A stretch of DNA of 31,876 bases from Myxococcales bacterium. Its GTDB lineage: Bacteria > UBA10199 > 2-02-FULL-44-16 > JAAZCA01. A program made the translations under genes and the position numbers. Where the stretch lies: contig JAAZCA010000018.1 in NCBI GenBank assembly GCA_012513515.1, forward strand, positions 1 to 31,876, in the 5' to 3' direction. Positions 305-11,752 of this stretch are shown piece by piece. Each line of letters begins with the position of its first letter. Positions within the stretch are counted from its first letter, which is position 1. The notes under the pieces are model-generated. The model searched no databases. It was not told the origin of the DNA and was given only the letters and a program-made list of their open reading frames with translations.

Positions 305-1468
305 ATGATTAAAAAATCCGCAAAAAAATCTGCTGAAAGCAGGGGTAAGAAGAGGGAGGATTCGAGGATCGCTGAGCTTCAGTCCCAGCTTTCGGAGCTG
401 AAAAAGCTCGTATCCATTCTCGAACGCGGGAAGTACATGTGGGAGTCAACTTTCGATGCCATCTCCTCGCCGGTGCAAATCATATCCAAGGATTATGAGA
501 TACTGAGGGCCAATATATCCCTCGCAGAAATAGCCAAGTCTGATATCAGGAAGATAATAGGTAGAAAATGCTACGAAGTCTTCGCGGGCAGGGATGTTCC
601 ATGCACGGGCTGCCCGGTTCTCGTGAAGTCGAAAGGAAAAAAGCCCTCTGTTTCACTGCTGGCAAACAAGATATTCGGGAGGGAATTCGAGGTCAGCGCA
701 TATCGTTACACAGGGGATGACAAGGGTTCCATCATACTTCATTACAGGGATGTCTCTGAGGAGCGGCGCTTGCAGCGAGAGGTGATCCAGCAGGAGAAGA
801 TGGCCGCGATAGGGATGCTCGCAGGCGGCGTGGCGCATGAGATCAATAATCCGCTCGGAGGGATAATCGCCTTTGCGCAGCTTCTCAAACGCGATGCTGC
901 TGAGTATCCCGTGATCAAGGACGACCTCGATGCGATAGAGGAAGCGGCGGGGCGCTGCAAAAAAATTGTCGCCGATCTTCTCGATTTTTCCAGGAGCTCA
1001 AGGGAGGGGGAACTCGCACCGACCGACCTGAACGTAATTCTAGAAAAAGTTTTTCCATTCATTCGCAGGGAGATGCAATCCTTAAATGTAGAGCTGATAT
1101 TCGACGCTGCCGGCAGGCTCCCCAGGGTGATGGCTAGGGCGGACAGGCTCCAGCAGGTTTTTCTCAACCTCATGACCAACGCCTGCCACTCGATGAATAA
1201 GGGCGGGAAGCTCTTCGTTTCGACATCTTCTTCGGAGGGCGGAAAGAAGGTGGTCGTGAAGATCAGAGACACCGGACACGGAATATCTTCCGAGGTACGC
1301 GACCAGATTTTCAATCCTTTTTTTACGACTAAGGAGCCGGGAAAAGGAACGGGGCTTGGTCTTTCCATAAGCTACAGGATAGTTCGCGAGCACGGCGGCA
1401 CTATAACATTCGAGGATGTGGAGGGCGGCGGCACGGAATTCGTTGTGCTTTTGCCAGCGTCCAAATGA
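305..1468 (+). CDS. Soluble PAS-domain sensor histidine kinase
   Basis: This is a 387-residue histidine kinase, expected to autophosphorylate on a histidine and pass the phosphate to receiver domains. A lysine-rich N-terminus and short coiled coil (about 18-42) precede a PAS domain (about 45-150). The HisKA H-box is HEINNPLGG with His178. The HATPase_c domain has an N-box with Asn288 and Asn292, a G1 box DTGHG (322-326), an F-box FNPFF (336-340) and a G2 box GKGTGLGL (346-353). All catalytic boxes look intact. No membrane segment is visible, so the sensor is probably cytosolic. The PAS domain carries Cys89, Cys100 and Cys103 (C-x10-C-x2-C), a possible redox or metal site. The ATG at 305 has only a weak ribosome site; the ATG at 291 hits a stop at once. 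Its stop is followed by the first of three NtrC-type activators, which are its likely partners. The ligand is unknown. Confidence 0.93.
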   Translation: MIKKSAKKSAESRGKKREDSRIAELQSQLSELKKLVSILERGKYMWESTFDAISSPVQIISKDYEILRANISLAEIAKSDIRKIIGRKCYEVFAGRDVPCTGCPVLVKSKGKKPSVSLLANKIFGREFEVSAYRYTGDDKGSIILHYRDVSEERRLQREVIQQEKMAAIGMLAGGVAHEINNPLGGIIAFAQLLKRDAAEYPVIKDDLDAIEEAAGRCKKIVADLLDFSRSSREGELAPTDLNVILEKVFPFIRREMQSLNVELIFDAAGRLPRVMARADRLQQVFLNLMTNACHSMNKGGKLFVSTSSSEGGKKVVVKIRDTGHGISSEVRDQIFNPFFTTKEPGKGTGLGLSISYRIVREHGGTITFEDVEGGGTEFVVLLPASK

Positions 1469-1482
1469 CGAGGGGGAAAAAG

Positions 1483-2889
1483 ATGGCAAGGATTCTTATC
1501 GTTGATGATGAAGTCGCTATAAGAAAGGCCCTTGAAAGATTTTTGAAAGGGCTGAAATACGAAGTGGTGACGGCCAAGGACGGCGAAGAGGGGATGAAAT
1601 ATGCCGCCGATCAGAGTTTCGATCTCGCGCTCGTCGATCTCGTGATGCCCAAGATGGATGGGGTGGAGTTCATAAGGGAGATCAAGAAGGTACAGCCCGC
1701 CATAGTTCCGATAGTGCTTACAGGCTTCGGCACGATCACGTCCGCTGTCGAGGCTATGAAGGCCGGCGCGTATCATTACCTCACGAAGCCCTTCGAGCTC
1801 GATGATATAGCGTCGCTGATAGCCACGGCCCTGGAACACAGCCAACTCAAGGAAGAAAACAGAATCCTCAAAAAACAGCTTAGGGACAAATATCATTTCG
1901 AAAATATCGTGGGCAACAGCGATGAGATGGCATCGGTTTTCGACATGATCGAGAAGGTTTCGGAGAGCGATTCCAACGTACTGGTTACAGGTGAAAGCGG
2001 CACTGGCAAGGAGCTGGTGGCCAGAGCCATCCACTATAATAGCCCTAGGAAGGACAAGCCGCTGATAATAGTGAATTGCGGAGCCATTCCGGAGGAACTC
2101 TTGGAGAGCGAACTCTTCGGACACATAAGAGGCTCCTTCACCGGAGCGGTGGCTACCAGGATGGGAAAGTTCGACGCCGCAAATGGCGGCACGATATTTC
2201 TGGATGAAATAGGGGACATGACTCTGAAGCTGCAGGTGAAAATTCTCAGGGTCTTGCAGGAACAGCGCTTCGATCCGGTGGGATCGACACAGACTCATCA
2301 GGTCGATGTCCGTATTATCGCAGCGACGAACAAAGACCTTGAGAAGTCCGTGAAAGAGGGAAAGTTCAGGGAGGATTTATACTACAGGCTCAACGTGATC
2401 CCGATTCACGTGCCTCCGCTCCGCGAACGTAAGGAAGATATACCGCTGCTGGTTCAGCATTTCGTAAACAAGAGCTGCAGCCTGTCCGGAAAGTGCGTAA
2501 GCGAAATTTCTCCAGAGGCGATGGGAGCCCTGGTCGAATACGACTGGCCCGGCAACGTGCGTGAGCTTGAAAATGTCGTGGAGAGGCTTGCCATCGTGAA
2601 GTCTCACGGACGGATCGAGCTCTCCGACCTTTCGCATAAGATAGTCGGATACAGCCCGGAAAATCGCGCTGTGCGTAAAAGTGGCGATTCGGAGCATAAA
2701 AACGAGTTCGATATTCCGGATGCAGGGCTTTCATTCAAGGACGCTGTCGAACAGTTTGAATCAAAGCTGATCGTCGGGGCTCTGAAAAGAACGGGCGGCA
2801 ACAAGAACAAGGCCGCCGCGTTGTTGAAACTCAACAGGACCACGCTGGTCGAGAAAATAAAGAAGAAGAAGCTTGAAGTTGAACTCTGA
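1483..2889 (+). CDS. NtrC-family sigma-54 response regulator (first of three)
   Basis: This 468-residue protein has a receiver, an AAA+ sigma-54 interaction domain and a Fis-type HTH. The receiver (1-115) has the acidic pair Asp8/Asp9, the phosphoacceptor Asp52 and the lysine of TKPF, so it should be phosphorylated, most likely by the kinase just upstream. The ATPase has Walker A GESGTGKE (170-177), the sigma-54 contact loop GSFTGA (217-222, a variant of GAFTGA), Walker B with Asp241/Glu242, and the later WPGNVRELENV motif. The HTH lies at about 432-468. An in-frame ATG at 1465 overlaps the kinase stop codon, but the ATG at 1483 has GAGGGG seven bases upstream and begins exactly at the receiver strand ARILIVDDE, so I chose 1483. 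Target promoters cannot be told from this window. Confidence 0.94.
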   Translation: MARILIVDDEVAIRKALERFLKGLKYEVVTAKDGEEGMKYAADQSFDLALVDLVMPKMDGVEFIREIKKVQPAIVPIVLTGFGTITSAVEAMKAGAYHYLTKPFELDDIASLIATALEHSQLKEENRILKKQLRDKYHFENIVGNSDEMASVFDMIEKVSESDSNVLVTGESGTGKELVARAIHYNSPRKDKPLIIVNCGAIPEELLESELFGHIRGSFTGAVATRMGKFDAANGGTIFLDEIGDMTLKLQVKILRVLQEQRFDPVGSTQTHQVDVRIIAATNKDLEKSVKEGKFREDLYYRLNVIPIHVPPLRERKEDIPLLVQHFVNKSCSLSGKCVSEISPEAMGALVEYDWPGNVRELENVVERLAIVKSHGRIELSDLSHKIVGYSPENRAVRKSGDSEHKNEFDIPDAGLSFKDAVEQFESKLIVGALKRTGGNKNKAAALLKLNRTTLVEKIKKKKLEVEL

Positions 2890-2914
2890 CTTCCTCCTAC
2901 GGAGAATTTGAAAG

Positions 2915-4345
2915 ATGCCGATGCACAGGATGAATCTCCTGATAGTGGATGACGATGACGCAATCGTCAAAATATTCGAGCGCATCTCACGCGATCGCAA
3001 CTGGAGCTATGCGGTGGCAAGGAGCGGCGAGGAGGCCCTGGAGCGTCTGAGCTCTGGAATTTTTGAAGCGGCGGTGGTCGATATAAAGCTTCCGGGTTTC
3101 ACCGGGCTTCAGTTTCTCGACTACGTAAAATCCAATCATCTGGGAACTGAGATAGTCATCATGACCGGGGTCGGGTCTGAAGAGATAGCCGTACAGGCTA
3201 TGAAGAAGGGGGCTTACGATTACTTTACCAAGCCCTTCGACGACATCAACAGGGTCGTCATAGTCCTCGAGAAGGCGATGGAACGTTTTTCTTTCGTGAA
3301 TAAGATAAGGTCTCTCGAGAGGAGGGGTGCTGATTCACCGTACTTCGAGGAGATGGTGGGCAAAAGTCGGAGTATGCACGAGATATTCGACATAATTAAC
3401 AGCATAGCCCCGAGCGATTCCGCCGTCTTGATACAGGGCGAGAGCGGAACAGGGAAGGAGCTTGTCGCGCACGCGATCCATCTTCGTTCCAAGCGCAAGG
3501 ATATGCCCTTTGTGGTGATAAATTGCGCTGCCATTCCGGGGCATCTTCTTGAAAGCGAACTCTTTGGCCATATCAAGGGTTCATTCACCGGAGCGATAGC
3601 CGACAAACCGGGACTACTGAAGACCGCTGAGGGCGGAACTGTTTTTCTCGATGAAATAGGGGAGATGCCCCCGTTGCTGCAGGTGAAACTCCTGAGGTTT
3701 CTGCAGGAGGGGGAAATACGGCCGGTAGGTTCCAACGATGTCGAGTACGTCGATGTCAGGCTCATAGTAGCCACCAATAGGGATTTGGGAAGGGCCGTGC
3801 GCGAAGGGGGCTTCAGAGAGGATCTCTATTACAGAATCAATGTGATAGGAATACACATGCCGCCGCTTCGTGACAGGCGGGATGACATCCCTCTGCTCGC
3901 TTATCATTTTCTCGACAAGTATGCCAAGCGCATGAAAAAGACGGTCAAGAGGATCTCTATAGACGCGCTTCACGCTCTGCAGTCGTATTCCTGGGTGGGC
4001 AACGTAAGGGAGCTCGAAAACGTCATCGAACGCGCCGTCGTCCTCGCGACCGACGAATCTATAACTACCCAGGATCTTCCCCCTAAGATCCTCGGCGAGG
4101 CATTCTATGCGCAGAATGATTTCGGCACATCTTCGGACCTCTATCAGTTGGCTTACAAGGAGGCGAAGAACAAGGCCCTGGAATCCTTCAACAGGGGGTA
4201 CATAGCCTCGGTGCTGAAGAGGGCCGGCGGCAATATATCCTTCGCTGCGGACAAGGCAAAGATGGACAGATCCAATTTCAAGAAGCTGATAAAAAAATAT
4301 TCCATACTCGTGGAAGAGTACAAAGAAGAGTTTAACAAGGAATGA
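2915..4345 (+). CDS. NtrC-family sigma-54 response regulator (second of three)
   Basis: This 476-residue protein shares the architecture of its upstream neighbour. The receiver has an acidic run at Asp12-Asp15, the phosphoacceptor Asp56 and the lysine of TKPF, so it looks functional. The ATPase has Walker A GESGTGKE (175-182), the loop GSFTGA (222-227) and a DEIGEM Walker B. The C-terminal Fis-type HTH (about 430-465) has a recognition region (MDRSNFKKLI) unlike that of the other two activators, which implies a different DNA site. The ATG at 2915 follows GGAG at 2901. It starts 25 bases after the first activator. No second kinase is present, so it probably shares the upstream one or answers to a kinase elsewhere. 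Confidence 0.93.
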   Translation: MPMHRMNLLIVDDDDAIVKIFERISRDRNWSYAVARSGEEALERLSSGIFEAAVVDIKLPGFTGLQFLDYVKSNHLGTEIVIMTGVGSEEIAVQAMKKGAYDYFTKPFDDINRVVIVLEKAMERFSFVNKIRSLERRGADSPYFEEMVGKSRSMHEIFDIINSIAPSDSAVLIQGESGTGKELVAHAIHLRSKRKDMPFVVINCAAIPGHLLESELFGHIKGSFTGAIADKPGLLKTAEGGTVFLDEIGEMPPLLQVKLLRFLQEGEIRPVGSNDVEYVDVRLIVATNRDLGRAVREGGFREDLYYRINVIGIHMPPLRDRRDDIPLLAYHFLDKYAKRMKKTVKRISIDALHALQSYSWVGNVRELENVIERAVVLATDESITTQDLPPKILGEAFYAQNDFGTSSDLYQLAYKEAKNKALESFNRGYIASVLKRAGGNISFAADKAKMDRSNFKKLIKKYSILVEEYKEEFNKE

Positions 4346-4362
4346 TATCGGAGGGGTTCAAG

Positions 4363-5745
<1,383 letters not shown>

Positions 5746-5778
5746 TTTCATCACAGTCTGCAAATGGAGGTTGATAAG

Positions 5779-6123
5779 ATGAATATCGAAGTGAAGCAAA
5801 ACGGCATGGTTCAGGTTCTACAGTGCGGCGGAAGCCTCGACGCTGACTCGGTCGCCGGTTTTAAAAAGGTAGCCTACGACCTGGTCAAGGGGGGATCCAA
5901 ACAGTTCGTCATAGACTGCAGTTCCCTCAATTTTATAGATTCGATGGGGCTTGGGGTTCTCATATCCCTTTTAAGGAGGGTGCGCCAACAGCAGGGCGAT
6001 GTCAAAGTGGCCGGGCTTAATGAGGATGTTAAGACGATCTTCGAGATTACCAGGCTTCACAGGCTTTTCGACGTGTGCAGCGATTCCGACGCTGCTGTCC
6101 GCAAGTTCGACGAGATGAAATGA
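5779..6123 (+). CDS. STAS-domain anti-anti-sigma factor (SpoIIAA/RsbV-like)
   Basis: A 114-residue single STAS domain. The family acts by binding an RsbW-type kinase when unphosphorylated and is switched off by phosphorylation of a serine. That serine is visible as Ser55 in NFIDSMGLGVL (51-61), the standard site. An in-frame ATG at 5764 exists, but GGAGG at 5766-5770 sits eight bases before the ATG at 5779, which is also where family members begin. It lies 33 bases after the third sigma-54 activator and directly before the kinase and phosphatase that would act on it, giving a complete partner switch. No sigma factor is encoded nearby, so the final target is unknown. Confidence 0.92.
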   Translation: MNIEVKQNGMVQVLQCGGSLDADSVAGFKKVAYDLVKGGSKQFVIDCSSLNFIDSMGLGVLISLLRRVRQQQGDVKVAGLNEDVKTIFEITRLHRLFDVCSDSDAAVRKFDEMK

Positions 6124-6135
6124 GGTTTGTTTCCA

Positions 6136-6540
6136 ATGCCGTTTTCATGCGAGCTGACAATACCGAGCGAAACTTCGAAGCTTGCTCCTTTACGCGAATG
6201 GCTGGCTTCAGTCCAAGGTCTCGTAGGCGAAGAGCTCTTCCCAAAGAGAGCCCTCTTCCCTTGCACCATCGCTTTGGTGGAGGCGGTGGACAACGCCATC
6301 TTTCATGCGCATGATGAAAATGGCGAGAAGCCAATAAGCATATCCCTCCGTTTGAACGGGAAGGGAATAACGATGGATATCGGCGACTGCGGATGCGGGA
6401 TGAAAAATGTGGCTGCCGATATTCCGGATGAGATGTCCGATCGTGGCAGAGGGCTCTTTCTGATGAACCGGCTTATGACCAGGGTCGAAAGTTTAGTTAT
6501 CGACGGAAATCACAGGATAAGGATGGAATACGAGATATGA
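6136..6540 (+). CDS. RsbW/SpoIIAB-like serine kinase (anti-sigma-type, HATPase_c)
   Basis: This 134-residue protein is a lone GHKL ATPase domain. The N-box is ALVEAVDNAIFHAH, with Glu49 and Asn53. The G1 box is DIGDCGCG (81-88) and the G2 box is GRGLFLM (104-110). Family members phosphorylate the STAS partner and sequester a sigma factor or another output protein. The TTG at 6127 would extend it by three residues but lies too close to the only ribosome site (GAGG at 6122-6125), so the ATG at 6136 is chosen. The gene starts 12 bases after the STAS gene and overlaps the phosphatase gene by four bases (ATGA), so the three are probably translationally coupled. Because no sigma factor adjoins it, the target could be something other than sigma. 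Confidence 0.88.
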   Translation: MPFSCELTIPSETSKLAPLREWLASVQGLVGEELFPKRALFPCTIALVEAVDNAIFHAHDENGEKPISISLRLNGKGITMDIGDCGCGMKNVAADIPDEMSDRGRGLFLMNRLMTRVESLVIDGNHRIRMEYEI

Positions 6541-7802
6541 ATGAACATTCCAGTACGACATCGCTTGAGGCGGTTCACTCGTTGAGTGTGGCTATAGCAA
6601 CCGCGGCTGATGCGGGTAAGATCTACGACCTGATTCTCGATGTCGTCGTGAAAACCCTTGGGGTCGAGCGCGCTTCGATAATGAGATACGATTCCTCGAT
6701 CGGCGCACTGCGCATAGTAGCTGCAAGAGGGATCTCACCTGAAATAGTGAAAAACGCATTGGTAAAAGTTGGCGAGGGGATTTCCGGTAAGGTCTTCGTC
6801 AGCAACGAGCCGCTTCTTATCAAGGAGATCAAAGCAGAGGAGGCTGGGCCGGGCAAAGGGCAGTACCGGACGAAATCTCTGATATCCGCTCCGGTCACGT
6901 GCTTTCCCATGAAGGTAGGCAAAGATGCCTTTGGAGTCATAAATGTCACGGATCGCAGCGACGGCAGCCCTTTCACGGAGTCGGATTTGAAACTCCTCAC
7001 CACCCTGGCGAATCAGGCCGCGGCCTATCTTCATATAGAGCAGCTCATGGAGGAACGCCAGGCCAACGAACGCCTGAAGCAGCAACTCGAGATAGCGAGG
7101 CAGATACAGTATAGGCTCGTACCCGTCGATTCTCCCAAAATAGAAGGGCTCGATGTGGCGGGGCGGCTCATCACCGCCGAAAGAGTCGGGGGAGATTATT
7201 ACGATTGCTTCACAAATGATCCTAAAAAACCGTCCTTCGTCATAGCAGATGTGTCGGGGCATTCGGTCGGCGCCGCTCTTATCATGGCGGCCTTCCGCTC
7301 GGCCATGAGGGCACAGCGCGATTGGGAATTCAACTCTTCCGAGTTGATGCAGAAGATCAACACGATACTTTTTGAGGATCTCTTTCAGGCAGAGCAATTC
7401 ATTTCGGCCACCTATCTTCAGTACATCAAATCGCGTCAGTTGATAGAATATACAAGCGCCGGCCATCCTCCGCCGATAGTGTGGCGAAACGCCGACGCAG
7501 CTTTCGAAGAACATGGCACCGGCGATCCTCTTCTGGGGATAGAACCCAAGGCGGTCTTTCACCAGAGGCAGGTCGTAGTGTCGAAGGGCGATGTCATAGT
7601 TCTTTACACGGACGGAATAACGGAGGCCGTGGACAAAAATGGGGAGCGCTTTGGCCACGATCGTCTGAAGGAGTGTCTGCGCGATGCGGTGGTCGGAAGC
7701 GCTCAACAGATAGTCGATGTCCTTGTTGAAACGGTTCAGGCCTTCATAGATCCGCTTCCAGCGAGAGACGATATAACAGCGTTGGTGATCAAGGTTGGCT
7801 GA
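6537..7802 (+). CDS. GAF-PP2C serine phosphatase (RsbU/SpoIIE-like)
   Basis: This 421-residue protein has a GAF sensor domain (about 20-170), a short helical linker and a PPM/SpoIIE-type phosphatase domain (about 190-421). Metal-binding aspartates are visible in VGGDYYD (Asp220, Asp223), IADVSGH (Asp238), LYTDGITEA and the C-terminal RDDITAL, so the enzyme looks active. In known partner-switching pathways such a phosphatase dephosphorylates the STAS protein, freeing it to bind the RsbW-like kinase; here both are encoded immediately upstream. The GAF domain is the probable signal input, with an unknown ligand. No membrane segment is seen. The ATG overlaps the kinase stop codon by four bases. 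Confidence 0.93.
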   Translation: MNEHSSTTSLEAVHSLSVAIATAADAGKIYDLILDVVVKTLGVERASIMRYDSSIGALRIVAARGISPEIVKNALVKVGEGISGKVFVSNEPLLIKEIKAEEAGPGKGQYRTKSLISAPVTCFPMKVGKDAFGVINVTDRSDGSPFTESDLKLLTTLANQAAAYLHIEQLMEERQANERLKQQLEIARQIQYRLVPVDSPKIEGLDVAGRLITAERVGGDYYDCFTNDPKKPSFVIADVSGHSVGAALIMAAFRSAMRAQRDWEFNSSELMQKINTILFEDLFQAEQFISATYLQYIKSRQLIEYTSAGHPPPIVWRNADAAFEEHGTGDPLLGIEPKAVFHQRQVVVSKGDVIVLYTDGITEAVDKNGERFGHDRLKECLRDAVVGSAQQIVDVLVETVQAFIDPLPARDDITALVIKVG

Positions 7803-7832: not shown

Positions 7833-9038
7833 ATGTCCTACGAGGAAGCCTGCGAATTTTTAGAACTCTTGAGGCCCAAGGGATTTCACATGGATTTGGG
7901 GCCCATCACGGAGGGGTGCTCTTCGATGGGACAGCCGCAAAGCGAATATCCTTCCGTCCATATAGGCGGTACGAACGGGAAGGGGTCGACAGCGGCGTTC
8001 ATGACGGAAATCCTCATGAAGAGCGGATATCGCGTTGGACTCTACACCTCTCCGCATCTGGTTAATGTCAGGGAGCGCATTCAGGTAAATCGAAAAGAAA
8101 TATCCGAAGATGATTTTTCGAATGTCATCGGCATGATCAGAAACTCGCTGATGGATGAGCGCTCGCTCAGTTTTTTTGAAATGCTGACGTTGGCCGCGTT
8201 CGTTCATTTCAGGGAGTCGAAGGTGGAGATCGCGGTATTCGAAACCGGGCTCGGCGGGCGTCTTGATGCCACCAATGTCATTATCCCCAAGGTGTCGATT
8301 ATCACCCCCATATCATTCGATCATACCGAACACATCGGAAGGACTCTGTCGGAAATTGCGAGGGAGAAAGCCGGAATAATCAAACGCGGCGTCCCTACGG
8401 TCACGGCTTATCAGCCTGCGGAAGTTATGAACGTCATCAAAAATGCCTGCGATGATATCGGCTCGCCTCTCTGCACGGCTTCTCCAGATGATGTGAAAGG
8501 CGAGCTCGGGCTCAAGGGCGAACATCAGAGGCAAAACGCATCATGTGCGGTGCAGGCTGCGGATATACTTGTCGAATACGGTTTTCACATAGACAACGTC
8601 GAAAAAGCGCTGCTCGAGACATCCTGGCCGGGAAGGCTGGAGGTCGTCTCGCAGTCGCCGATGGTGATCCTCGATGGCGCCCACAACGTAGCTGGCGCGG
8701 AGTCCCTCGCATGTTTTGTCAGAAGCAGCGTTCCAAAAAAGAAGGCCGTACTCATGTTGGGCGTTCTTGGCGACAAGGACTTCTCCGGGTTGATCCGCCC
8801 GTTGGCACCGCTTTTCAGCAGGATCATCTGTGTTCGGGCCCCTTCGGAGAGGGCCGCGTCACCAAAGGATCTCGCTGCCGCTGCCAGATCTTCCGGGGCG
8901 GATATCTCCATAGAGGATGGTGTCGTCGATGCCCTGAAAAAGACGATGAAAAAACTCGGGAAGGATGAGACTCTCATCGTCTCCGGTTCCCTGACGGTCG
9001 TAGGGGAGGCCAAGGCCTTCTTTAACAGGATCTCCTGA
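7833..9038 (+). CDS. folC: Bifunctional folylpolyglutamate synthase / dihydrofolate synthase
   Basis: This cytosolic Mur-ligase-fold enzyme adds glutamate to dihydropteroate and to folates, using ATP. It has 401 residues, close to the normal family length. The P-loop GGTNGKGST (45-53), the motif FETGLGGRLDATN and the C-terminal domain motif DGAHNVAGAESL are all present. The ATG follows CAGGAG. It starts 30 bases after the phosphatase gene and shares one base with polA (TGATG), so it is probably part of the same transcript as the regulators upstream. Dual activity is assumed from the family; a single-function FolC cannot be excluded. Confidence 0.95.
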   Translation: MSYEEACEFLELLRPKGFHMDLGPITEGCSSMGQPQSEYPSVHIGGTNGKGSTAAFMTEILMKSGYRVGLYTSPHLVNVRERIQVNRKEISEDDFSNVIGMIRNSLMDERSLSFFEMLTLAAFVHFRESKVEIAVFETGLGGRLDATNVIIPKVSIITPISFDHTEHIGRTLSEIAREKAGIIKRGVPTVTAYQPAEVMNVIKNACDDIGSPLCTASPDDVKGELGLKGEHQRQNASCAVQAADILVEYGFHIDNVEKALLETSWPGRLEVVSQSPMVILDGAHNVAGAESLACFVRSSVPKKKAVLMLGVLGDKDFSGLIRPLAPLFSRIICVRAPSERAASPKDLAAAARSSGADISIEDGVVDALKKTMKKLGKDETLIVSGSLTVVGEAKAFFNRIS

Positions 9039-11752
9039 TGGCAAAAAAGAGATTATATCTCATCGACGGTTCCAACTACTTATTTCGCGCCTTCTATGCG
9101 ATTCCCAGACTGACCAATTCCAAAGGTTTTCCGACGAACGCCCTCCACGGCTTTGCGAAGATGCTCCTCAAGCTTCAGAAGGAGGGCAAGCCGGAATACA
9201 TGGCGGTTTGCTTCGATCGTCCGGAGCCAACCTTTCGGGACGGGATTTTTGAAAATTACAAGGCCAACAGACAGGCTCCGCCCGAGGATCTCGAAAAACA
9301 GTTTCCATATATGCGCCCGCTTGTCGAGGCACTTGGGCTTAAAGGGGTCGATCTCCCGGGGTACGAGGCCGATGATATCATCGGAACGCTGGCGAAAAAG
9401 TATGCCTCCGATGATACCGAGGTTGTAATAGTCTCCGGCGATAAGGATATGATGCAGCTGATAGGTCCAAATGTCATCATGTACGACGGCATGAAGGATA
9501 AATGGGTTGGCGACAAAGAGGTGATTGAAAAATTTGGCGTTGCTCCGGAAGGTGTGGTTGAAGTTCTCGGTCTGGCGGGGGACTCATCCGACAATGTTCC
9601 CGGGATATCCGGGGTTGGTCCGAAAACTGCTTCCAAACTGATACGGGAATACGGCAGCATAGAAAAGGTCATCAAGAATGCGGAAAGGATCGGTGGCAGC
9701 CTCGGCAAAAAACTTCTGGATGGTGCGGAGCTGGCCCGTATTTCATTGAGCCTAGTTAGGATAGCTACCGATGCCCCGCTCGATATACAACTCAAGGATC
9801 TCGTCCCTAAAAGGATGGGGGGGGAGCAAGCCGTCGCGTTTTTTAAAGAGTTAGAATTTTCAGGGCTTCTGACTGAACTCGGAGAAAATACATTTGAATC
9901 CACAATATCCTTCGAGAAATACTTCACAGTTACAGAAGAAAAAGCTTTGATAAAGCTATGTAACAGCTTAAAAAATAAAGAATATTTATCCATAGACCTC
10001 GAGACTACCTCCCTTGATCCGATCGACGCCAAGATCGTGGGGTTCTCCCTCTCCTGGGAGGCCGGTGAGGCTGCCTATCTTCCCATCGGACATCTTCCTT
10101 CAGCTCCTTCCAACCTCTGCGATCAAGGGCCTCTCTTTGAAATTTCGGACCCTCCGGCACAGCTGACCATCGAGGAGATAAAAAGGCATCTGGGGCCGCT
10201 TCTTGCCGAGCCTTCTCTCCCCCTGATCGGCCAGAATCTGAACTATGATCTTACCGTATTGAAGCAGCACGGTTTTCAATATGCCGGGGTGCACTTTGAT
10301 ACGATGATAGCCTCATATCTGATAGATCCCCTCGGGGAGCATGACCTGGATTCGCTTGCCGAAAAATATCTCGAGCACAGGATGATCCGATATGAGGATG
10401 TCGTAGGGAAGGGTAAATCTGAGATCTGCTTTTCAAGAGTTCCGATAGATTCGGCGCGCGACTATGCCTGCGAGGATGCCGATGTGGCTCTGCGCCTTTT
10501 TCACATATTCAGAAAAGAGATAAAGGAAAAATGCCGCGACCTCTTCAATAAGATAGAGATGCCGTTGATCGATCCCCTTGTGGACATGCAGATAGCGGGG
10601 GTGAAGGTGGATTCCGGAAAGCTTGCCCGGATAGGGGCCGATTTCGCGAATAAGCTGGGATCTCTGGAGAAGAAAATTTTTGAGCTTGCGGGCGAGGAGT
10701 TCAACGTCAATTCTACGAAGCAGCTTGGCGTCATACTGTTTGAAAAGCTCTCCCTCAAAGGGGGCAAAAAAACGAAAACCGGTTATTCCACGAGCCAGGA
10801 GATTCTGGAGGAGCTTTCATCGCAGCATGAACTTCCTGGCAAGGTTCTAGAATACAGGACTCTTTCGAAATTGAAATCCACCTACGTCGATGCGTTGCCC
10901 CAGCTCATATACAAGCGCAGCGGAAGGATTCACACCTCTTTCAATCAGGCCAGAACGGCGACAGGGAGGCTCTCTTCTTCGGATCCGAATCTTCAGAATA
11001 TACCGGTGCGCGGGGAAGAGGGAAGGCGAATTCGCGAGGCTTTTGTAGCTGAAAAGGGTTTCAAACTCCTCTCGGCGGATTATTCCCAGATAGAGTTGCG
11101 CGTTTTGGCCCACATGTCCGGCGACGAAAACCTTCTGCAGGCCTTCGCGGAGGGGCTCGATGTACACGCCATAACGGCCTCCGGAATTTTTGGGGTGCGC
11201 GTGAGGGATGTCACAAGGGAGCAGCGCACGGTCGGCAAGACGGTCAACTTCGCTACGATATACGGTCAGGGGGCCTTCGGGCTTTCAAAACAGCTTGGGA
11301 TTTCTGCGGGTGAGGCGGCGAGTTATATAGAAAATTATTTCAAGAAGTATCCTGCCGTAGCCAAATATCGCGAACTCGTTTTATACGAGGCGAAAAACAG
11401 GGGATACGTCGAGACCCTATTTGGAAGAAGGCGTCCGGTAGGGGAGCTTTCAAGCCAGAACAGGATGGCGGTGCAGATCGCCGAGCGTGTTGCCTTCAAT
11501 ACGGTTTTTCAGGGGACTGCCGCCGATATAATCAAGATAGCCATGATAGATATACATGCCGGGATAGGCGATATTTCCAAAGGGGCGAAGATGATAGTCC
11601 AGGTTCATGACGAACTCCTCTTTGAGGTCCCTGATGGAGATTGTGAGGTTTTGAAGAGCTTCGTAGTTTCGAAGATGGAGGGGGCGGCGCAACTCAAAGT
11701 TCCGCTTGTGGTCGATGTTGGAATAGCCGATAACTGGGCCGAAGCCCACTGA
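9038..11752 (+). CDS. polA: DNA polymerase I
   Basis: This full-length 904-residue repair and Okazaki-fragment polymerase has three domains. The 5'-3' nuclease (about 1-290) shows LIDGSNYLFRAFY, the ADDIIGT motif, VSGDKDMMQ and the helix-hairpin-helix around GISGVGPKTASK. The 3'-5' proofreading domain (about 300-500) keeps its acidic residues: Asp320 and Glu322 in SIDLETTS, NLNYDL, and YACEDAD, so proofreading is probably active. The polymerase domain has motif A (LLSADYSQIELRVLAHMSGD), motif B (RTVGKTVNFATIYGQGAFG) and motif C (VQVHDELLFEV). The start overlaps the folC stop by one base. Its position at the end of a signalling operon is uncommon. Confidence 0.97.
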   Translation: MAKKRLYLIDGSNYLFRAFYAIPRLTNSKGFPTNALHGFAKMLLKLQKEGKPEYMAVCFDRPEPTFRDGIFENYKANRQAPPEDLEKQFPYMRPLVEALGLKGVDLPGYEADDIIGTLAKKYASDDTEVVIVSGDKDMMQLIGPNVIMYDGMKDKWVGDKEVIEKFGVAPEGVVEVLGLAGDSSDNVPGISGVGPKTASKLIREYGSIEKVIKNAERIGGSLGKKLLDGAELARISLSLVRIATDAPLDIQLKDLVPKRMGGEQAVAFFKELEFSGLLTELGENTFESTISFEKYFTVTEEKALIKLCNSLKNKEYLSIDLETTSLDPIDAKIVGFSLSWEAGEAAYLPIGHLPSAPSNLCDQGPLFEISDPPAQLTIEEIKRHLGPLLAEPSLPLIGQNLNYDLTVLKQHGFQYAGVHFDTMIASYLIDPLGEHDLDSLAEKYLEHRMIRYEDVVGKGKSEICFSRVPIDSARDYACEDADVALRLFHIFRKEIKEKCRDLFNKIEMPLIDPLVDMQIAGVKVDSGKLARIGADFANKLGSLEKKIFELAGEEFNVNSTKQLGVILFEKLSLKGGKKTKTGYSTSQEILEELSSQHELPGKVLEYRTLSKLKSTYVDALPQLIYKRSGRIHTSFNQARTATGRLSSSDPNLQNIPVRGEEGRRIREAFVAEKGFKLLSADYSQIELRVLAHMSGDENLLQAFAEGLDVHAITASGIFGVRVRDVTREQRTVGKTVNFATIYGQGAFGLSKQLGISAGEAASYIENYFKKYPAVAKYRELVLYEAKNRGYVETLFGRRRPVGELSSQNRMAVQIAERVAFNTVFQGTAADIIKIAMIDIHAGIGDISKGAKMIVQVHDELLFEVPDGDCEVLKSFVVSKMEGAAQLKVPLVVDVGIADNWAEAH

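What the first reader, a model, noticed from the sequence alone, without database searches (positions are those of the whole stretch)
305..7802. One transcript may combine a His-Asp relay with three sigma-54 activators and a full Ser partner switch
A soluble PAS kinase, three consecutive NtrC-type activators, a STAS protein, an RsbW-like kinase and a GAF-PP2C phosphatase lie in order on one strand, with gaps no larger than 33 bases and several overlaps. Tandem NtrC proteins and partner-switching modules are each known, but this exact chain is one I do not recall as a described system. No sigma factor is present, so the switch might control the activators themselves, especially the third, rather than a sigma factor. 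That last step is inference.
Basis: partly seen in the sequence, partly recalled or inferred. Interest (0 to 1): 0.78.

Follow-up and report, generated by a model that had tools for sequence, protein, structure and literature searches.

The report
Sigma-54 operon with built-in serine switch
A seven-gene control operon, joining a sensor kinase, three sigma-54 gene activators and a complete serine-phosphorylation switch, is kept in the same order across most families of an uncultured bacterial class, although no dedicated sigma factor that the switch could control goes with it.

Summary
Seven genes (PAS histidine kinase, three NtrC-type activators EBP1-3, STAS, RsbW-like kinase, GAF-PP2C phosphatase) lie in order at 305-7802. 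Of 46 genomes held for the class, 35 carry the switch, 34 of them directly behind EBP3 (or after one inserted gene) and one split by contig ends. Catalytic residues are kept. The HK-EBP1-2-3 core is more widely kept: one clade has it without the switch, a second fuses RsbW and RsbU into one protein. No sigma factor co-travels. The genome's only non-housekeeping sigma-70-family factor (FliA/WhiG-like) is kept in 7 of 8 switch-less genomes and missing from two switch-bearing ones; one of those (99% complete) has only RpoD, an RpoH-like sigma and RpoN. A dedicated sigma target is therefore unlikely. Best reading (inferred): the switch feeds into the sigma-54 activators of its own operon, as NifL's GHKL domain does with NifA. 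Nearest rival: a parallel branch as in Vibrio Syp. I found no description of this chain in open-access papers.

The parts
305..1468 (+). Soluble PAS-HisKA-HATPase sensor kinase (AtoS/NtrB-like); His178; three invariant Cys C89, C100, C103 in the sensor part
   Evidence: Cys and His invariant in 33 of 33 orthologues
1465..2889 (+). EBP1: NtrC-type activator, receiver intact (D14, D15, D58, T86, K108), GSFTGA loop, Fis-type HTH
   Evidence: phospho-Asp kept in all sequences that have the domain
2915..4345 (+). EBP2: NtrC-type activator, receiver intact here (D56), GSFTGA; sister paralogue of EBP1; near-invariant HTH AGMDRSNFKKI
   Evidence: receiver eroded in part of clade B
4342..5745 (+). EBP3: AAA+ intact (GAYTGA, Walker A and B), Fis HTH intact, receiver degenerate (V60 in place of phospho-Asp, Y111 in place of Lys)
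   Evidence: receiver homology by HHalign 99.3-99.5%
5764..6123 (+). STAS protein (RsbV/SpoIIAA-like); phosphorylatable Ser60 (IDSMGLG); likely true start 5779
   Evidence: Ser invariant in 34 of 34
6127..6540 (+). RsbW/SpoIIAB-like GHKL serine kinase; N-box E52/N56; likely true start ATG 6136
   Evidence: AlphaFold model pLDDT 85.6 best matches SpoIIAB-sigmaF 1l0o, with RsbW 6m37 close behind
6537..7802 (+). GAF-PP2C (SpoIIE-type) phosphatase, RsbU-like; metal-binding Asp kept
7833..9038 (+). FolC; conserved next gene behind the chain, possibly same transcript
9038..11752 (+). PolA; follows FolC in the window's order and several other families (context, not part of the system)

Best explanation
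This is a class-wide sigma-54 signalling operon. Core (shown by sequence and conservation): a soluble kinase with an invariant three-cysteine sensor part and three activators; EBP1 (and EBP2 in the window's clade) can take a phosphoryl group, EBP3 cannot. Accessory unit (shown): a complete RsbU-STAS-RsbW partner switch attached behind EBP3 in two of three clades. How it works (inferred): the kinase phosphorylates EBP1/EBP2; independently RsbW phosphorylates STAS on Ser60 and is then free, while the GAF-PP2C phosphatase, on its own signal, restores STAS, which captures RsbW. Free RsbW has no dedicated sigma factor to bind; it most likely restrains one or more of the AAA+ activators of the same operon (EBP3 the first candidate, because it has no phosphorylation input, but EBP1 and EBP2 not excluded), in the way the GHKL part of NifL holds the AAA+ domain of NifA. 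The operon would thus act as a coincidence gate of a His-Asp input and a Ser input on one set of sigma-54 promoters.
For: Fixed order in 34 of 35 switch-bearing genomes, switch not seen elsewhere in those genomes. Own genome has one SpoIIE phosphatase and one stand-alone RsbW, one RpoN and 3 of its 6 full activators here. Switch residues intact; RsbW fold like SpoIIAB/RsbW. No dedicated sigma: G006, 99% complete with an intact chain, has only RpoD, an RpoH-like sigma and RpoN; the FliA/WhiG-like sigma is decoupled from the switch in both directions. Precedent: NifL GHKL/DHp domains bind the NifA AAA+ domain and block hexamers (PMC12998174). Independent RsbW-REC-HK-EBP row in another phylum. 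Covariation beyond FolC distance in clade C: STAS-EBP3 0.46, RsbW-EBP3 0.27, against 0.14 and 0.00 for EBP2.
Against: No direct evidence of RsbW or STAS touching any EBP. Clade A keeps HK-EBP1-2-3, with EBP3 equally degenerate, without any switch, so no EBP needs the switch. The mirror-tree control STAS-RsbW is itself weak (0.19) and EBP1 ranks high when clade B is added. In the closest studied case, Syp, the switch does not act on the activator (PMC3610818). RpoD, RpoH or RpoN remain possible partners.
Confidence: 0.43

Rival explanations
1. Parallel branch, as in Vibrio Syp: the activators set transcription, while unphosphorylated STAS (or RsbW) acts on a non-transcriptional target, for example surface polysaccharide or export. 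The two modules share an operon because they serve one process.
For: Syp pairs a sigma-54 activator (SypG) with a SypA/SypE switch whose effect is below syp transcription (PMC3610818, PMC10120452). A ManC-like GDP-mannose gene sits between EBP3 and the switch or FolC in clades A and B. Sigma-54-like sites in the own genome lie before lipoprotein or secreted ORFs.
Against: No polysaccharide genes are in the window's operon; clade C lacks ManC here. Which activator uses which site is unknown.
Confidence: 0.25
2. Classical anti-sigma switch: RsbW binds the FliA/WhiG-like sigma factor encoded elsewhere.
For: RsbW fold is closest to SpoIIAB bound to sigmaF; the genome has one FliA/WhiG-family sigma, a group related to sigmaB/sigmaF (own knowledge).
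Against: That sigma is kept in 7 of 8 switch-less genomes and missing from switch-bearing G006 and G025; no sigma gene was seen in any of the switch loci read.
Confidence: 0.09
3. RsbW targets a housekeeping or shared sigma (RpoN, RpoD or RpoH) directly.
For: All three are present in the own genome and in G006; an RsbW-RpoN pairing would suit a sigma-54 operon.
Against: RpoN is equally present in switch-less clade members other than f20, and RpoD-type sigmas in those tested; no covariation test was done.
Confidence: 0.11
4. No mechanistic link: two independent signalling modules share a promoter or a syntenic block with FolC-PolA.
For: The switch is dispensable in clade A and FolC closes up behind EBP3 there, as expected of separate cassettes.
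Against: The switch was never seen away from EBP3 in 35 genomes of deep divergence, with frequent 4-base overlaps, while PolA and other neighbours have drifted away in several families.
Confidence: 0.12

Closest known systems
Vibrio fischeri syp regulators (RscS/SypF, SypG, SypE, SypA)
   Same: Sigma-54 NtrC-type activator together with a STAS protein and an RsbW-PP2C enzyme in one locus, switch output not through a known sigma (PMC3610818, PMC10120452)
   Different: One activator, not three; SypE has a REC domain that links the switch to the histidine kinase; switch acts below transcription; polysaccharide genes in the same locus
Bacillus RsbU-RsbV-RsbW / SpoIIAA-SpoIIAB-SpoIIE
   Same: Same three enzyme types with intact catalytic residues, same RsbW fold
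   Different: No sigma gene in or tied to the locus; attached to a histidine kinase and three sigma-54 activators
NifL-NifA
   Same: Proposed step: a GHKL-domain protein restraining a sigma-54 AAA+ activator (PMC12998174)
   Different: NifL is not a serine kinase and uses no STAS/PP2C pair; NifA has a GAF, not a receiver
FleQ and other pseudo-receiver activators
   Same: EBP3 is an AAA+ activator with a receiver lacking the phospho-Asp (PMC12632262)
   Different: FleQ answers to FleN and c-di-GMP (PMC12632262); no FleN-like gene lies in this operon
TciR-like REC-RsbW regulators (Vogesella)
   Same: RsbW-like domain wired to a histidine kinase outside the sigmaB setting (PMC12826045)
   Different: RsbW fused to REC; a two-gene operon without EBP triplet, STAS or PP2C

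Membership tests
Partner-switching system (RsbU/RsbV/RsbW type) | STAS protein with conserved phosphorylatable Ser in D-S-x-G-L-G context | tested here: met
   Ser60 in 34 of 34 orthologues; TIGR00377 over cut-off
Partner-switching system (RsbU/RsbV/RsbW type) | GHKL serine kinase with N-box E..N and G boxes | tested here: met
   E52/N56 and GRG motif kept; SpoIIAB/RsbW fold
Partner-switching system (RsbU/RsbV/RsbW type) | PP2C phosphatase with metal-binding Asp | tested here: met
   GGDYYD, ADVSGH, TDG, RDD motifs kept; domain lost only in G012, where a RsbW-GAF fusion remains
Anti-sigma (SigB/SigF) locus | Cognate sigma-70-family gene in the locus or co-occurring with the switch | tested here: not met
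   None in the loci read; FliA/WhiG-like sigma decoupled; G006 has only RpoD and an RpoH-like sigma besides RpoN
NtrC-type two-component sigma-54 activators (EBP1, EBP2) | Receiver with Asp, AAA+ with GAFTGA-type loop, Fis-type HTH | tested here: met
   EBP1 and EBP2; GSFTGA variant
NtrC-type two-component sigma-54 activators (EBP3) | Phosphorylatable receiver | tested here: not met
   0 of 41 EBP3 orthologues have Asp at the phospho-site; EBP3 is a pseudo-receiver activator
Syp-type switch | REC domain in the kinase/phosphatase enzyme, polysaccharide genes in the locus | tested here: not met
   RsbW and RsbU carry no REC; no such genes in the window's chain
NifL-type anti-activator | Direct binding of the GHKL protein to an EBP | not testable with these tools
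   No complex prediction or binding assay available

The most novel reading that the evidence does not exclude
A partner switch whose third partner is not a sigma factor but a sigma-54 enhancer-binding protein: RsbW acts as an anti-activator of an AAA+ activator (probably EBP3, whose receiver cannot be phosphorylated), so that His-Asp and Ser phosphorylation converge on one activator set, in a fixed operon of a whole bacterial class.
Probability: 0.33. Interest if true: 0.85.

Novelty: new variant of a known kind. Interest (0 to 1): 0.6.

Why it matters
Targets of several partner switches without a sigma factor are unknown (PMC8256260), and how pseudo-receivers are switched is called a mystery (PMC12632262). 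Here both puzzles sit in one small, conserved operon: nature provides versions with the switch, without it, with kinase and phosphatase fused, and with the phosphatase domain lost. That makes the question 'what does RsbW hold when there is no sigma factor?' directly testable with a handful of purified proteins.

Tried and rejected
EBP3 degeneracy as proof of switch control: rejected, it is the same in the switch-less clade. FliA/WhiG-like sigma as necessary target: rejected by decoupling. Conserved sigma-54 promoter upstream of the operon: not found in the upstream regions scanned, only L065 stands out; sigma-70 and terminator scans are at or near chance. Calditrichota L081 looked similar but holds only REC proteins and no EBP. 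AlphaFold of EBP3 had pLDDT 52 and was not used. Mirror-tree with an internal baseline was uninformative; with a FolC baseline it gives only a weak lean.

Full report
OBSERVATION. The window is contig C18 of a 1.79 Mb, 99% complete genome. Seven ORFs run in order on the + strand between 305 and 7802. Pfam and NCBIfam give HisKA-HATPase; three times REC-AAA+(sigma-54)-Fis; STAS; HATPase_c_2; GAF-SpoIIE phosphatase. Likely true starts of STAS and RsbW are 5779 and 6136. The genome has six full sigma-54 activators, so half of them are here; it has one RpoN, three sigma-70-family factors, namely an RpoD-sized one, RpoH and a FliA/WhiG-like one, one SpoIIE-type phosphatase and one stand-alone RsbW (the other PF13581 matches lie in longer frames with weak scores).

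CONSERVATION. Searching relatives with the RsbW protein and reading the neighbourhoods showed HK-EBP1-EBP2-EBP3-STAS-RsbW-RsbU-FolC again and again. A profile of EBP3 was then run on all 46 genomes held for the class; the next nearest held genomes are only 'same domain'. My tally over: 35 genomes carry the switch (34 adjacent to EBP3 or after one inserted gene; one, G022, split by contig ends), 8 lack it, 3 are unresolved (G016 contig edge; G037 and G041 incomplete). Sister MAGs are mostly named 'Deltaproteobacteria bacterium', several from groundwater; from memory this looks like candidate phylum UBA10199, which I did not test. Among the best 80 loci from 84,980 species' genomes, the chain appears only in members of this group. 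Gaps between genes are mostly short, with many 4-base overlaps.

EVOLUTION. A tree of the concatenated HK and EBPs has three clades, each with support of 100. Clade A (f4, f9, f13, f18, f20, and f11 unresolved): core without switch; FolC follows EBP3 directly or after a ManC-like nucleotidyl transferase or another gene (in G009 FolC was not found there). Clade B (f7, f10, f12, f14, f16, f19, f21): RsbW and GAF-PP2C are one protein of about 560 aa; f6 has lost EBP3 and the switch; f7 keeps a RsbW-GAF fusion without the phosphatase domain. Clade C (f1, f2, f3, f5, f8, f15, f17; the window): separate genes. The tree is midpoint-rooted, so loss in A and gain in B+C cannot be told apart. EBP1 and EBP2 are sister paralogues; EBP3 is a separate lineage.

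RESIDUES. STAS Ser60 is invariant in 34 sequences, RsbW N-box residues and PP2C aspartates are kept. EBP1 receivers are intact everywhere; EBP2 receivers are intact in A and C with rare exceptions and eroded in part of B; EBP3 has no Asp at the phospho-site in any of 41 orthologues, in all clades, while its N-terminus is still recognisably a receiver (HHalign 99.3-99.5%) and its AAA+ and HTH are highly conserved. In clade-B G045 (L064) EBP2 has lost Walker and GAFTGA motifs but keeps the HTH. The kinase's sensor part has three invariant cysteines, C89, C100 and C103, in 33 of 33: a metal or redox role is a guess.

TARGET OF THE SWITCH. (i) Dedicated sigma: the FliA/WhiG-like sigma is present in 7 of 8 switch-less genomes and missing in switch-bearing G006 and G025, with only a diverged fragment in G035. 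G006 has two sigma-70-family genes, an RpoD-sized one and an RpoH-like one beside dihydroorotase as in the own genome, plus RpoN. So no SigB/SigF/WhiG-type partner exists there, within 99% completeness. (ii) EBPs: they are the invariable neighbours. EBP3 is attractive because it lacks a phosphorylation input, but that state is independent of the switch, and its receiver is not more conserved where the switch exists. Distance covariation with FolC as baseline gives STAS-EBP3 0.46 and RsbW-EBP3 0.27 in clade C, EBP2 near zero; the STAS-RsbW control reaches only 0.19: inconclusive. (iii) Precedent for a GHKL protein on an AAA+ activator is NifL-NifA (PMC12998174). (iv) Precedent against is Syp, where SypE/SypA act below syp transcription (PMC3610818, PMC10120452). 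(v) In another phylum (L054) a stand-alone RsbW-like gene lies in a row with a REC protein, a PAS kinase and an NtrC-type activator, an independent association.

OUTPUT. A sigma-54 pattern search of the own genome gives 21 sites against 5 for the reversed pattern. Several intergenic ones stand 37-49 bases before ORFs with signal or lipoprotein peptides (L158, L159, L161, L162), one with an fn3 domain. Which EBP acts there is unknown. No sigma-54 promoter is seen before the operon itself.

VERDICT. Real, conserved and, as far as my literature searches reach, undescribed (open-access papers only). Parts are known; the fixed combination and the missing sigma partner are new. I call it a new variant of a known kind. 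Shown: anatomy, conservation, catalytic residues, predicted RsbW fold, absence of a dedicated sigma. Inferred: one transcript, the serine cycle, contact of the switch with the activators.

Noticed in passing
L181 and L182 (genomes G034, G039, family f20): Both genomes keep HK-EBP1-2-3 with intact GSFTGA/GSYTGA loops but no RpoN was found with TIGR02395 or PF04552; activators without sigma-54, or a missed RpoN.
   Followed up: partly
window 569-613 (kinase residues 89-103): Three invariant cysteines (C-x10-C-x2-C-P) in the sensor part of the kinase in 33 of 33 orthologues; possible metal or redox sensor.
   Followed up: partly
L054:6010-9453: In a genome of another phylum a stand-alone RsbW-like kinase, a REC protein, a PAS kinase and an NtrC-type activator lie in a row.
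   Followed up: no
L060:6920-8005, L073:6435-7550, L181:8407-9273: ManC-like mannose-1-phosphate guanylyltransferase between EBP3 and the switch or FolC in clades A and B; absent there in the window's clade.
   Followed up: partly
L064:12720-14066: EBP2 of G045 has lost Walker and GAFTGA motifs but keeps an intact HTH: a DNA binder that can no longer be a sigma-54 activator.
   Followed up: no
L073:7979-8878: RsbW-GAF fusion with no phosphatase domain, next to a STAS protein with the conserved Ser.
   Followed up: no
L158, L159, L161, L162 (own genome): Sigma-54-like sites 37-49 bases before ORFs with lipoprotein or signal peptides; possible surface-protein regulon.
   Followed up: partly
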